Below are positions 485 to 3,920 of a DNA stretch of 7,249 bases, one piece after another. The position numbers were made by a program, and so were the translations under genes. The DNA lies in the NCBI GenBank assembly GCA_002711555.1, contig PARQ01000020.1, positions 1 through 7,249 of the forward strand, written 5' to 3'. The stretch's first letter is position 1. Each line of letters begins with the position of its first letter. Source of the stretch: Rhodospirillaceae bacterium (GTDB lineage: Bacteria > Pseudomonadota > Alphaproteobacteria > UBA8366). The notes below the pieces were generated by a model that did not search any database, had not been told where the DNA came from, and saw nothing but the letters and a program-made list of their open reading frames with translations.

Positions 485-507
485 ACCCATGCAAAAATTG
501 CATAGGT
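485..507. promoter_or_regulatory. Operator-like 23-base inverted repeat (ATGCAA-AAA-TTGCAT core)
   Basis: ATGCAA (489-494) and TTGCAT (498-503) are perfect inverted arms around AAA. After one mismatch the symmetry continues with ACC (485-487) against GGT (505-507), so nine of ten arm positions pair. It lies about 15-40 bases upstream of the predicted promoter of the DUF1127 gene, the usual place for a dimeric activator or repressor site. The CAA-N3-TTG core resembles sites described for NtrX-type regulators, but I would not assign it on that alone. Confidence 0.4.
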
Positions 508-520
508 GCGTTGCAGCAAT

Positions 521-552
521 TTTGTTGGATTACAATATACCCAATGTATATA
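521..552 (+). promoter_or_regulatory. Candidate promoter of the DUF1127 gene, housekeeping or heat-shock type
   Basis: Two overlapping readings are possible. As a housekeeping promoter, TTGGAT (525-530) and TATATA (547-552) are 16 bases apart. As an RpoH-type promoter, CCCAATGT (540-547) matches seven of eight positions of the heat-shock -10 consensus CCCCATNT, with a weak TTTGTTG element (521-527) 12 bases upstream. Either would start transcription about 30-40 bases before the ATG at 593. RpoH control would fit what is known of DUF1127/CcsR loci in Rhodobacter, but the -35 match is poor. Confidence 0.3.
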
Positions 553-592
553 TCTGTTATGTGACAGCGTAATGTATGAAGGGATATTGTTT

Positions 593-781
593 ATGGCGTC
601 TTCAAGACTAGGTATGAAACCTCGGCAATTTGTTGGTGTAAGAGTGTTACAAGCTATTGGTAGAGCCTTAGATGCTCGTGATACGTACCGCGAATTATCA
701 GTTTTAAACGACGTAGAGCTCGCGAAACGCGGTCTTCATCGTAACGACATCGTCAAGCAGGCGATGGAAAAGCTTGGCTAA
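593..781 (+). CDS. Small basic DUF1127 (YjiS-like) protein
   Basis: This encodes a 62-residue basic protein. Residues 31-53 carry the DUF1127 signature: an arginine-rich helix, then RELSVLND, then GLHRNDI, matching the family pattern of REL..L.D..L...GL.R.DI. The ATG at 593 is chosen because AAGGGA (579-584) lies 8 bases upstream; the in-frame GTG at 506 and ATG at 572 lack this and would add non-conserved residues. From the family: DUF1127 proteins are common in alpha- and gammaproteobacteria, are often stress-induced, and at least one from Rhodobacter (CcaF1) binds RNA and affects its co-transcribed CcsR small RNAs. Others have been linked to phosphate or carbon metabolism. Here the gene appears monocistronic and ends in a terminator directly against the convergent pntB. 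The role of this copy is not known from sequence. Confidence 0.88.
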   Translation: MASSRLGMKPRQFVGVRVLQAIGRALDARDTYRELSVLNDVELAKRGLHRNDIVKQAMEKLG

Positions 782-833
782 GTCCTCCCTTAAGTCAAGC
801 TCATTGGCGGGTCCCTCGGGACCCGCCTTTTTT
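771..833 (+). ncRNA. Possible 3'-UTR small RNA with a UCCUCC loop (CcsR/cuckoo-like)
   Basis: The last codons of the DUF1127 gene and the following bases form a long hairpin: 771-779 pairs with 793-801 (nine pairs, one G-U), A792 is bulged, and 780-782 pairs with 789-791, leaving the six-base loop TCCTCC at 783-788. A second hairpin (806-827) with a T-tract ends the transcript. A hairpin presenting an anti-Shine-Dalgarno loop downstream of a DUF1127 gene is the layout known for CcsR/cuckoo RNAs of Rhodobacter and relatives. This version has one such loop, overlaps the coding region and is short (about 63 bases). The pairing is visible; the existence of a processed RNA is inferred. Confidence 0.45.
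806..833 (+). terminator. Strong rho-independent terminator of the DUF1127 gene
   Basis: GGCGGGTCCC (806-815) and GGGACCCGCC (818-827) are perfect inverted arms, effectively a nine-pair GC-rich stem with a CTCG loop, followed by six T residues (828-833). The T-tract overlaps the pntB stop codon (832-834 on the minus strand). In the opposite direction the hairpin is not followed by a T-run, so it should act as an intrinsic terminator only for rightward transcription. Confidence 0.93.
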
Positions 834-2220
834 ATTCAAGTGCCTTTACAATATCCTCGCACATTTGCTTCGCGTCTGAAAAAAGCATCATAGTGTTCTC
901 TCGAAAAAACAGCTCATTATCGACGCCAGCATAACCAGATCCAAGTGAACGTTTAATAAAAAGCACGGTAGCTGCACGTTCCACGTCAAGAATTGGCATC
1001 CCGTAGATGGCACTCTGGGGGTCGGTTTTGGCTGCGGGGTTAGTAACATCGTTTGCGCCTATAACAAATGCTACATCTGTGCTAGGGAAATCTCTATTTA
1101 TTTCATCTAGTTCTAACACCTCATCGTAAGGTACGTTTGCTTCAGCTAACAGCACATTCATGTGCCCGGGCATTCGCCCGGCTACTGGGTGGATAGCATA
1201 CCGGACGTTAATACCTTCTTTTTTCAATAAGTCTGCCATCTCACGCAGAGCATGCTGTGCCTGCGCAACAGCCATGCCATAACCTGGGACGATAATTACG
1301 CTTGAAGCATTTTTCATTATGAACGCAGCGTCATCAGCACTTCCAGCCCTTACATTTCTATCGCCTGTAACACTACCTGTTGTTGAAGTTTCACCCCCAA
1401 AACCACCGAGTATCACGCTTATAAACGACCTATTCATTCCTTTACACATTACGTAGCTAAGAATAGCACCTGATGAACCCACTAGAGCTCCCACTATTAT
1501 TAAAGCTGGATTGGAAAGTGTGAAGCCGATACCACATGCCGCCCAACCAGAATATGAATTCAGCATTGAAATAACAACTGGCATATCTGCGCCACCGATG
1601 GGAATAATCATTAAAATGCCGAGTAATAAGGCTAAGCCGACAATGGTCCAATAAAGTTGTTCCGATTGATCAGTGCAAATCATTACGACTAATGCCACCA
1701 TAATGATTCCAAGTACTGCATTCAGTAGGTGTTGGCCTGAGAAGATAACCGGGGCTCCGCTCATAATTCCCTGCAATTTTGCAAAAGCGATAATAGAGCC
1801 GGTGAAAGTCAACGCGCCGATTGCCGTTCCAATGCTCATCTCAACCATACTAGGGGTAGGAATGCTTAGGAAGTCACCTATCCCATAGGCCGCTGGCTGA
1901 TAAAACGCAGCCGATGCGACAAAAACTGCGGCGAGCCCTACCAAACTATGGAAGGCTGCAACAAGTTGGGGCAGTGCTGTCATTTGAATTCGGCGTGCAA
2001 TAATATCACCAATAGCTCCGCCTATTACTAAACCAACTATTATCCAGTCATAACTGACTACGCTGGGGGATGCGAGTGTCGTTGCAATGGCAATTACCAT
2101 TCCAGTGATACCAAACATATTACCATTGCGCGCAGTCTCGGGTGACGAAAGACCACGCAGTGCCATAATGAAAAATATGCTAGCGATCAAGTAAGCGATC
2201 GCAGAGAAATTTTCGCTCAT
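832..2220 (-). CDS. pntB: NAD(P) transhydrogenase beta subunit
   Basis: PntB is an integral membrane subunit of proton-translocating transhydrogenase, which reduces NADP+ with NADH using the proton gradient. At 462 residues it has the same length as E. coli PntB. Residues 1 to about 260 form the membrane part (domain II), a series of hydrophobic helices that includes His91 in the FHSLVGLA segment, the GGADMPVV motif (Asp212) and Asn221 in LNSYSGW; these correspond to residues in the proton channel and its coupling in E. coli. Residues about 290-462 form the NADP(H)-binding domain III, with the GYGMAVAQ nucleotide-binding loop (313-320), HPVAGRMPGHMNVLLAEA (344-361), GANDVTNPA (388-396) and KRSLGSGYAG (423-432). 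It is the last gene of the operon, 9 bases after pntAB. The AAGGA ribosome binding site (2227-2231) overlaps the pntAB stop codon, suggesting coupled translation. No terminator of its own is visible. Confidence 0.98.
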   Translation of the reverse strand: MSENFSAIAYLIASIFFIMALRGLSSPETARNGNMFGITGMVIAIATTLASPSVVSYDWIIVGLVIGGAIGDIIARRIQMTALPQLVAAFHSLVGLAAVFVASAAFYQPAAYGIGDFLSIPTPSMVEMSIGTAIGALTFTGSIIAFAKLQGIMSGAPVIFSGQHLLNAVLGIIMVALVVMICTDQSEQLYWTIVGLALLLGILMIIPIGGADMPVVISMLNSYSGWAACGIGFTLSNPALIIVGALVGSSGAILSYVMCKGMNRSFISVILGGFGGETSTTGSVTGDRNVRAGSADDAAFIMKNASSVIIVPGYGMAVAQAQHALREMADLLKKEGINVRYAIHPVAGRMPGHMNVLLAEANVPYDEVLELDEINRDFPSTDVAFVIGANDVTNPAAKTDPQSAIYGMPILDVERAATVLFIKRSLGSGYAGVDNELFFRENTMMLFSDAKQMCEDIVKALE

Positions 2221-2642: not shown

Positions 2643-3920
2643 TTACGCTCCTTTCACAGACTTTTTAGAACGCCTTACTTGGCGTTTGCTAATAGTTCTT
2701 TGTTTTGCTGCCTTCACTGTTTTTTTCCTCTTGACGTTAGAAGATGTCTTTCCTGAGGAGGACTTGCGACTAATCTTCCTCTTTAAAGTTGGGTGCACGA
2801 CCGCTCCGTTCTCCGTTACTTTGATTCCCTCAATTATTTCATCTTTGGGATCGAAAACAATTTTGCTTAGTTTCTTGTCAAAAAATGGTGTGAGAAAATT
2901 GAACAAGTTTCGCGAAAACAGTTTACTGGCTTCCTCTGGAAGCCTACCTGGAACATTATCATAACCAACGATGGTAACCCCATTGTATTTTACGATTTGT
3001 CCTAGCTTTGAGCCGGCACAGTTCCCTCCAGCTTCGACTGCAAGATCAATTACAACAGAACCTGGTTTCATAATTTTAAGCATTGAATTGGAGACGAGTT
3101 TCGGCGCGGGACGACCTGGTATTAGCGCAGTGCAAATAACAATATCTTGTTTTGTTATATGGTCGGAAATTAAACGAGATTGTTTGCGCTTATAATCAGC
3201 ACTCATTTCCTTTGCATACCCACCTGCAGTCTGTGCCTTTCTAAATTCTTGGTTTTCCACCGCTATGAATTTTCCACCAAGCGACTCGACCTGCTCCTTT
3301 GTCGCAGGGCGCACATCTGTAGCCGTTACAATTGAGCCGAGACGTCTAGCGGTTGCTATTGCTTGGAGACCCGCTACACCGACACCCATGACAAAGATGC
3401 GTGCTGGCGGAACAGTTCCCGCTGCTGTCATCATCATAGGCAAGGCCCTGCTGTAATGAATCGTAGAATCGAGCACTGCTTTGTAGCCAGCCAAGTTTGA
3501 TTGTGAGGATAAAATATCCATCGATTGTGCGCGCGTGATTCGAGGCATTAATTCCATTGCATAGCCAGTGATACCAGCTTTCGCCATTGCCAAAATAAAT
3601 TTTGATTCCGTCAGAGCATTCATCTGACAAATGAGAATTTGGCCTTTGGTGAATGCAGCGAGTTCATTTTTTTTCTCACCTGCAATCATCGGTCGTTGAA
3701 CCTTCAGGACTATATCAGCACCTCTTATCGTAGCTGCTGCGCTAGCCCCTATAGATGCGCCAGCTGCCCTATACTCTGCATCACTGAAAGAGGCACAAGC
3801 ACCAGCATTTTTTTCAATTGAGATGTTAAAGCCGAGATCGATAAATTTTTTAACGGTCTCTGGTGAAGCTGCGACACGGGTTTCGCCGGGCCGCAATTCC
3901 TTTAATATGGAAATTTTCAT
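2643..3920 (-). CDS. pntAA: NAD(P) transhydrogenase subunit alpha part 1 (NAD-binding domain), with a basic C-terminal tail
   Basis: PntAA is the cytoplasmic NAD(H)-binding domain I of transhydrogenase. Residues 1 to about 135 are the AlaDH/PNT N-terminal domain, starting with [15 protein letters not shown]. Residues about 140-350 include the Rossmann motif GVGVAGLQA (179-187) and the acidic residue Asp202 in TDVR. Arg127, Gln132, Asp135, Ser138 and the mobile-loop Tyr235 (GGYAKEM) fall at positions I recall as functional in Rhodospirillum rubrum PntAA, so the enzyme should be active. The R. rubrum protein is about 384 residues; this one has 425. The extra part (381-425) has 19 lysines or arginines and nine serines among 45 residues and no acidic residue, and looks disordered. 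The ATG at 3920 is supported by AGGA (TCCT at 3930-3933 on the plus strand) 9 bases upstream. It is the first gene of pntAA-pntAB-pntB. Confidence 0.97.

What the first reader, a model, noticed from the sequence alone, without database searches (positions are those of the whole stretch)
771..833. DUF1127 gene ends in a hairpin that presents an anti-Shine-Dalgarno loop: possible CcsR/cuckoo-like 3'-UTR small RNA
Seen directly: a 12-pair stem (one G-U, one bulged A) from 771 to 801 displays TCCTCC in its loop, and a strong terminator hairpin follows 4 bases later. The stem includes the last codons and stop of the DUF1127 gene, so one sequence serves both protein and RNA. Known: in Rhodobacter and many other alphaproteobacteria, DUF1127 genes are co-transcribed with CcsR/cuckoo RNAs whose hairpin loops carry CUCCUCCC, and the DUF1127 protein CcaF1 binds RNA. 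Inference: this is a minimal, single-loop, coding-overlapping form of that system in a different lineage. The released RNA could pair with GGAGGA ribosome binding sites or titrate an RNA-binding regulator, and the DUF1127 protein could control its processing.
Basis: partly seen in the sequence, partly recalled or inferred. Interest (0 to 1): 0.7.

Follow-up and report, generated by a model that had tools for sequence, protein, structure and literature searches.

The report
LsrB-box DUF1127 gene, anti-Shine-Dalgarno 3' hairpin
A tiny bacterial gene seems to be switched on by a known stress regulator and ends in an RNA hairpin that could block other genes' ribosome sites, while the separate small RNA often found beside that regulator appears to be missing in its close relatives.

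Summary
The hairpin is real: 12 pairs at 771-801 (one G-U, one bulged A), loop UCCUCC, then a terminator. It is kept in the three close relatives found (89-90% protein identity); its three changes keep pairing or lie in the loop. Two relatives at 52% identity keep gene and terminator beside pntB but lack it. By Rfam it is not a CcsR/alpha-r14 RNA, a test that works on true members. The new result lies upstream: a conserved element (489-525) fits the published LsrB/VtlR box, and that regulator activates DUF1127 genes and the anti-Shine-Dalgarno RNAs AbcR1 and NfeR1. Five of five family genomes tested encode an LsrB homologue. A CUCCC-plus-terminator unit follows lsrB in seven of seven comparison genomes (two of them chosen through it) but in neither of two intact clade genomes; a third has masked bases. 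The two sister genomes show the mirror pattern: separate RNA, no DUF1127 hairpin. Best reading: one LsrB-driven mRNA makes a DUF1127-like protein and ends in an anti-Shine-Dalgarno hairpin that may stand in for the lost RNA. Transcription, processing and targets are untested. Main rival: a terminator for convergent pntAB.

The parts
489..525 (+). conserved upstream element ATGCA-N5-TGCAT-AGGTGCGTTGCAGCA
   Evidence: 4 of 37 columns vary in four species against 33 of 66 in the rest of the leader; kept in G003/G004
499..513 (+). LsrB/VtlR-box-like site TGCATAGGTGCGTTG; GCAT-N3-TG-N3-T fits exactly at 500-512
   Evidence: 12 of 15 bases against the reverse complement of the published motif CAATGCAGCCATGCA (PMC12595884); box form from PMC7486931
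525..530 (+). -35-like TTGGAT
   Evidence: read by eye, kept in four species; the promoter scan did not list it
547..554 (+). -10-like TATATATC
   Evidence: read by eye, mostly kept; not in the promoter scan
578..584 (+). Shine-Dalgarno-like GAAGGGA; AAGGGA is complementary to UCCCUU at 786-791
   Evidence: sequence; kept in four species; duplex -8.1 kcal/mol against -8.7 for a consensus SD
593..781 (+). DUF1127-like small protein, 62 aa
   Evidence: Pfam PF06568 18.8 bits, below cut-off
771..801 (+). anti-Shine-Dalgarno hairpin, 12 pairs, overlapping the last codons and stop
783..789 (+). UCCUCCC (loop 783-788 plus C789)
   Evidence: ACCUCCC in L002
806..833 (+). intrinsic terminator, 9-pair stem then TTTTTT
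832..2220 (-). pntB, convergent neighbour (source of the minus-strand rival)
   Evidence: PF02233 E 1.2e-197

Best explanation
This is a dual-purpose stress transcript of roughly 270 bases. A LysR-type activator of the LsrB/VtlR kind binds the box at 499-513 and switches on the promoter at about 525-554. The mRNA is translated into a 62-residue DUF1127-like protein and ends at the terminator at 833. Its last codons, stop and 3' untranslated bases fold into a hairpin that shows UCCUCC(C), which can pair with GGAGG-type ribosome binding sites, either as part of the mRNA or as a roughly 60-base RNase-released 3' piece carrying the U-tailed terminator. In this clade the hairpin probably does the job of the stand-alone anti-Shine-Dalgarno RNA that sits beside lsrB elsewhere and is missing here. 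Shown: hairpin, conservation, box match, presence of the LsrB homologue in relatives, absence of the lsrB-adjacent RNA unit in relatives. Inferred: LsrB binding, transcript ends, processing, target pairing, replacement.
For: Hairpin in the window and 3 of 3 close relatives found; 21 pairs in two helices, 84 of 84 cells paired, two stem changes both pair-keeping, third change in the loop. Noncoding half varies at 3 of 20 columns against 33 of 66 in the leader (p 0.005) and 175 of 462 pntB third positions (p 0.03). The box element with up to one mismatch occurs in 16 of 385 class genomes (G001 one of them) and 0 with the pattern reversed; by eye 10 of these 16 sites precede DUF1127-like genes and 2 precede small-RNA units beside lsrB. 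A shorter form occurs in 8 of 14 genomes tested, control 0; in G001, G002 and G011 its only place is this promoter. LsrB homologues in 10 of 10 genomes tested, 51-57% identical to the L179 homologue in the five family genomes; the G001 protein's best solved match is 9hh1 (E 2.3e-92), the A. tumefaciens LsrB structure (PMC11975290 passages). A CUCCC motif plus terminator follows lsrB in 7 of 7 comparison genomes, and in 0 of 2 for G001 and G011; chance of such a unit is about 0.003 per 700 bases (6 in both strands of 609,722 bases). G002 shows no box and no TCCTCC/CCTCCC there, with masked bases. Passages of PMC8844928 and PMC10746234 report LsrB activation of AbcR1 and NfeR1, and aSD1 = CUCCUCCC in the AbcR 5' hairpin loop.
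Against: No RNA data of any kind. Four sequences carry the hairpin, with no two-sided compensatory change, and the shuffle control cannot tell it from chance (500 of 500 reach the observed values). Most box-bearing DUF1127 genes have no such hairpin: 8 of the 10 judged by eye have no TCCTCCC within 700 bases. The replacement idea rests on one evolutionary contrast. The seven comparison genomes are not a random sample: G084 and G382 were found through a box beside their lsrB unit, G065, G371 and G293 through CcsR loci, G003 and G004 as sisters. G002's region after lsrB holds masked bases. The relatives are draft genomes, so a site or RNA may be in missing DNA, and no whole-genome Rfam search for AbcR/SorX-like RNAs was made. 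The 15-base box alone matches by chance about once per 45 kb of strand (27 sites with 12 or more of 15, two of them this locus), and the shorter element also occurs at sites without a DUF1127 gene (G005, G008, one in G293). PMC11975290 calls LsrB unique to Rhizobiales, although the PMC7486931 abstract (listing) calls VtlR conserved in the class.
Confidence: 0.52

Rival explanations
1. The hairpin works on the other strand as the 3' end or weak terminator of the convergent pntAB transcript, with a GGAGGA loop and a UUUU tail.
For: On the minus strand it folds at -9.4, -9.4, -9.3 and -16.6 kcal/mol in the four species and is followed by UUUUCC in three. In G003/G004 the shared terminator has an A-run on its 5' side and so looks bidirectional; the window clade has none there.
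Against: Weaker than the plus strand (-12.3, -12.3, -12.8, -15.0) in three of four species, because the G-U pair becomes C-A. The U tail is broken to UUCUCC in L002. The tail is coding sequence of the small gene.
Confidence: 0.15
2. A reduced, true descendant of a CIN1 (DUF1127 plus CcsR/alpha-r14) locus, shrunk to one hairpin.
For: Same order of parts; first hairpins after DUF1127 in L137, L138 and L146 carry UCUCCUCCC or CCUCCUCCC loops; L146 closely shares the upstream element; another DUF1127 gene of the order, L028 in G023, is followed 42 bases after its stop by a single 10-pair hairpin with UCCUCCC in the loop and then a terminator.
Against: Proteins are remote: 12-14 identities over 31 aligned residues. 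G003/G004 at 52% identity lack the hairpin. No ar14/CcsR1 match. CCTCCTCCC is not in excess in 8 family genomes taken together (113 against 138 for the reversed pattern). L028 has no forward match to the upstream element.
Confidence: 0.15
3. Only a stabilising or accessory hairpin before the terminator; the anti-Shine-Dalgarno loop is coincidence.
For: One arm is fixed by the coding end EKLG-stop; such hairpins arise at about 2e-4 per given gene end and many windows were read; with a looser definition 21 of 1002 control stretches of 170 bases hold a CCTCC hairpin.
Against: Loop CCUCC kept in 4 of 4; noncoding half about as conserved as the terminator (3 of 20 against 3 of 30 columns); the same regulator's other known targets include anti-Shine-Dalgarno RNAs.
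Confidence: 0.18

Closest known systems
AbcR1/AbcR2 (alpha-r15) and SorX/SorY-like RNAs beside lsrB
   Same: LsrB-type regulator, LsrB box upstream, CUCCUCCC-type loop in a hairpin (AbcR aSD1), U-tailed terminator
   Different: They are separate noncoding RNAs next to lsrB; here the hairpin is the end of a protein-coding mRNA elsewhere in the genome, and the lsrB-adjacent unit is absent in G001 and G011 (and not seen in the partly masked G002)
CIN1 loci: DUF1127 (CcaF1) plus CcsR / cuckoo / alpha-r14 RNAs, including NfeR1
   Same: DUF1127-like gene followed at once by an anti-Shine-Dalgarno hairpin and a terminator; similar upstream element in L146; NfeR1 is LsrB-activated
   Different: One hairpin, loop UCCUCC, stem overlapping the coding end, no Rfam match, remote protein
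LsrB/VtlR-activated DUF1127 genes (Brucella BAB1_0914, BAB2_0512, BAB2_0574; A. tumefaciens atu1667, called orthologous to the first two in PMC7486931)
   Same: small DUF1127-type gene with the same kind of binding box
   Different: No anti-Shine-Dalgarno hairpin is described for them in the passages read; PMC7486931 leaves open whether atu1667 also acts as an RNA

Membership tests
CcsR / cuckoo / alpha-r14 | match to Rfam RF02344 or RF02791 | tested here: not met
   neither among 12 weak hits at E<=10 for 700-900, none at E<=1 for the window; control pSymA 89.9 and 90 bits for RF02344
CcsR / cuckoo / alpha-r14 | several hairpins each with CCUCCUCCC (three or four in PMC3927594, two in RS0680a) | tested here: not met
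   one hairpin, AGUCCUCCC, 7 of 9 bases
CcsR / cuckoo / alpha-r14 | follows a DUF1127 gene (CIN1 form) | tested here: met
   stem overlaps the stop of a DUF1127-like gene, Pfam below cut-off
CcsR / cuckoo / alpha-r14 | processed, stress-induced RNA | not testable with these tools
   needs RNA data
LsrB/VtlR regulon | box GCAT-N3-TG-N3-T upstream of the promoter | tested here: met
   exact at 500-512, conserved
LsrB/VtlR regulon | LsrB homologue in the genome | tested here: met
   tested in relatives only: 5 of 5 family genomes searched, of 11 held, 9hh1 best solved match; no whole genome is held for the window
LsrB/VtlR regulon | direct binding and activation | not testable with these tools
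   needs gel shift and reporter
AbcR / SorX-like RNAs | stand-alone gene beside lsrB | tested here: not met
   window locus lies beside pntB; unit absent after lsrB in G001 and G011, not seen in partly masked G002
DUF1127 (PF06568) | score above Pfam cut-off | tested here: not met
   18.8 against 23.3 bits; L001 18.4 bits, L010 and L011 no DUF1127 hit

The most novel reading that the evidence does not exclude
The anti-Shine-Dalgarno function of an LsrB-controlled small RNA has moved in evolution: the stand-alone RNA beside lsrB was lost, and its motif re-arose at the end of the one remaining LsrB-box gene, a DUF1127 mRNA, which then serves as both protein message and riboregulator.
Probability: 0.33. 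Interest if true: 0.75.

Novelty: new variant of a known kind. Interest (0 to 1): 0.6.

Why it matters
It ties together things usually studied apart: DUF1127 genes, LsrB/VtlR, and anti-Shine-Dalgarno RNAs. It offers a natural case of a small RNA turning from an independent gene into the tail of a co-regulated message, and possibly a one-site regulon in which LsrB function can be tested simply. It also predicts an LsrB system outside the Rhizobiales, which one paper denies (PMC11975290) and another allows (PMC7486931 abstract, VtlR conserved in the class).

Tried and rejected
Rfam on the window: no match at E<=1; best weak match on 700-900 is Listeria sbrA, 23.8 bits against 45 needed, taken as terminator likeness. 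Covariance model R1 from four sequences: strong in 3 of 43 order genomes (103-106 bits), matches up to 29.5 bits in others, which I took for terminators without checking each; it gives 16.8 bits on the pSymA alpha-r14 locus L134, not used as evidence. Exact hairpin pattern in viral contigs: 0; protein in viral contigs: none. CCTCCTCCC in 8 family genomes: 113 against 138 reversed; the four in G010 at 12-base steps look like a simple repeat. 3' ends of 39 loci read (window plus 38; for the Pfam search 30 loci, one from each of 30 of the 35 genomes with a match, not every DUF1127 gene): this hairpin only in the window, L001, L002 and L044; a later looser scan of the same 39 found CCTCC-loop hairpins in 6, the four plus L028 (10 pairs) and L041 (7 pairs); the permuted motif CTCCC also gives 6, partly the same places, other permutations 1-3. 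CcsR1 search of 385 class genomes: 41 with a match at E<=0.01, 0 over the cut-off, and one of 14 control genomes also rings below it; 30 loci scanned for motifs, three CIN1 loci clear: L137, L138, L146. Own-RBS pairing is no stronger than a generic SD duplex. A strand test from the two stem changes was indecisive. Metagenome relatives P0002-P0011 could not be read as DNA, since no metagenome scan was allowed. I did not fetch the remaining DUF1127 matches.

Full report
What is there. The window holds, in order, an upstream intergenic stretch, a 62-codon ORF (593-781), a hairpin (771-801), a terminator (806-833) and, convergent, pntB (832-2220 minus). The ORF is a divergent DUF1127 protein: Pfam gives 18.8 bits where 23.3 are required, E 0.0014, NCBIfam gives nothing, and the protein search found 11 proteins, all at least 85% identical, one of them the window's own.

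Is it kept. Three genomes with 89-90% identical proteins carry it in the same place beside pntB: G001 (CAJWLM010000001.1) and G002 (PBCW01000074.1), both labelled Rhodospirillaceae MAGs, and unnamed G011. All 84 pair cells are standard pairs. The two stem changes, both in G011, turn G-U into G-C and U-A into U-G; the third change, in G002, turns the loop into ACCUCC. No pair has changed on both sides, and the shuffle control has no power here. The noncoding half (782-801) varies at 3 of 20 columns, the coding half at 0 of 11, the spacer and terminator at 3 of 30, the rest of the leader at 33 of 66, pntB third positions at 175 of 462 (p values). Two further genomes of the same family, G003 and G004, have the gene at 52% identity in the same place, with a terminator, but without hairpin and loop. 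Six of the 11 family genomes held matched the protein at all, one of them, G006, only remotely. The hairpin is therefore a feature of one narrow clade. Because only four sequences carry it, the covariation evidence is consistent but thin.

Is it CcsR/cuckoo. As a positive control I took two CCUCCUCCC clusters on S. meliloti pSymA; Rfam recognises both as ar14, RF02344, and weakly as CcsR1, RF02791. The window is recognised as neither, even at E 10 on 201 bases. A class-wide search (385 genomes) gave real CIN1 loci. In L137, L138 and L146 a DUF1127 gene is followed closely by a hairpin whose loop holds UCUCCUCCC or CCUCCUCCC, then by more such hairpins and a terminator. So the window resembles the first module of a CIN1 locus and may work like one, but it fails the tests for membership. 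On checking I also found that one other DUF1127 gene of the order among the 30 read, L028 in G023, has a single 10-pair hairpin with UCCUCCC in its loop 42 bases after the stop, followed by a terminator; the minimum-energy fold did not show it. With this looser definition 6 of 39 gene ends score (window clade 4, L028, and a weak 7-pair case L041) against 21 of 1002 control stretches of equal length, and a permuted motif, CTCCC, also scores 6. Single-hairpin forms may thus have arisen more than once.

The upstream element. Alignment showed a block at 489-525 that is better conserved than the gene's third positions (4 of 37 against 34 of 59 columns) and is still present in G003 and G004, where the hairpin is not. 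A loose form, derived from the window, stands upstream of 17 of 42 DUF1127 loci (13 of 38 without the window clade), with 0.04 expected from shuffles, 0 of 42 in the downstream stretch, but also 7 of 42 on the reverse strand. A strict form with at most one mismatch occurs in 16 of 385 class genomes, G001 included, and in none with the pattern reversed. Read by eye, 10 of the 16 sites precede DUF1127-like genes (L167, L168, L170, L172-L176, L181, L182), 2 precede small-RNA units next to a LysR gene (L179, L180), and 4 precede something else or something unclear (L169, L171, L177, L178). Papers then gave the name: VtlR (LsrB) directly activates small DUF1127-type genes and AbcR RNAs, with the motif given as CAATGCAGCCATGCA (PMC12595884, passages) or GCAT-N3-TG-N3-T (PMC7486931, passages). 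The window site TGCATAGGTGCGTTG matches 12 of 15 bases of the reverse complement, is the best match in the whole window, and fits the box form exactly.

The regulator. Each of ten genomes tested has a homologue of the LysR protein found beside the L179 RNA units; in the five family genomes tested (of 11 held) identity is 51-57%. The G001 protein's best solved match by far is 9hh1, which PMC11975290 gives as A. tumefaciens LsrB (passages). NCBIfam has no model that names it. Names in the protein search are only LysR family (best 120 of 7971 listed). In G001, G002, G011 and G004 the composite site TGCATNGNTGCNNTGCA occurs once per genome, upstream of this gene; 4 of 8 genomes matched, G003 having one mismatch. 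A shorter form matched 8 of 14 genomes: in G004 both the DUF1127 promoter and the lsrB unit, in G003 the lsrB unit, in G005, G008 and one of three places in G293 sites without a DUF1127 gene.

The missing RNA. In S. meliloti, AbcR1 and AbcR2 lie beside lsrB, AbcR1 is LsrB-activated, and the loop motif of the 5' hairpin is CUCCUCCC (PMC8844928, passages). NfeR1, an alpha-r14 RNA, is also LsrB-activated, from a site at -72 to -57 (PMC10746234, passages). In seven comparison genomes (G003, G004, G065, G084, G293, G371, G382) lsrB is followed within 700 bases by a CUCCC motif and a strong terminator; chance would give such a unit in about 0.003 of such stretches. The seven are not random: G084 and G382 were found through the box beside that unit, so five are free of that choice. 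Rfam reads these units as SorX or SorY, two over the SorX cut-off (L190, L192), the others below cut-offs. In G003 and G004 the unit has its own box. In G001 and G011 the same place has no box and no terminator; a CTCCC lies at +372 to +374 without a terminator. In G002 there is no box and no TCCTCC or CCTCCC, but the stretch holds masked bases. Thus the sister pair has a separate RNA and a plain DUF1127 message, and the window's clade has no separate RNA there and a DUF1127 message with the anti-Shine-Dalgarno hairpin. This is one evolutionary contrast, so it suggests replacement and does not prove it.

How it probably works. From the box, the promoter-like TTGGAT/TATATATC (read by eye; the scan lists other, chance-level sites) and the terminator, I infer a message of roughly 270 bases, activated by LsrB, perhaps under oxidative stress as in S. 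meliloti. Whether a 3' piece is released, whether Hfq or the DUF1127-like protein takes part, and which messages are hit is unknown. Published views of DUF1127 differ: CcaF1 binds RNA and takes part in maturing CcsR RNAs (PMC10253847, passages), while other members act through the kinase PhoR (PMC12501420, passages). No paper in the searches was seen to describe this arrangement, judged from listings and the passages read.

Limits. No whole genome is held for the window, so regulator and missing RNA are read from relatives, which are drafts. Conservation p values treat columns as independent. Identity of DUF1127 genes was judged by motif, not by Pfam.

Noticed in passing
L028 (G023), 42 bases after the DUF1127 stop: A single 10-pair hairpin with UCCUCCC in a 14-base loop, then a strong terminator: a second single-hairpin case in the same order, without the LsrB-like element.
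   Followed up: partly
L146/L175 (G293) and L139 (G196): LsrB-box-like elements stand upstream of a full CIN1 locus and, more loosely, of a stand-alone CcsR cluster, suggesting that LsrB may also drive CcsR RNAs.
   Followed up: partly
L209 (G293:C8:137786): An LsrB-box-like site lies about 110 bases upstream of a gene that looks like elongation factor P (label recalled, not from a call).
   Followed up: no
L179, L180, L183, L184: Tandem small-RNA units with UUCCUCCC loops follow lsrB in two unnamed alphaproteobacteria; Rfam reads them only below cut-off (SorX, suhB, ar14), so they may be unlisted AbcR-like RNAs.
   Followed up: partly
window 2643-2800 minus: The PntA subunit ends in a tail of about 45 residues very rich in lysine and arginine.
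   Followed up: no
L010 and L011 terminators: In G003/G004 the terminator between the DUF1127 gene and pntB has an A-run before and a T-run after it and looks bidirectional; the window clade has no A-run.
   Followed up: partly
window 578-584 and 786-791: The gene's own ribosome site AAGGGA is complementary to UCCCUU of its 3' hairpin, allowing self-pairing.
   Followed up: partly
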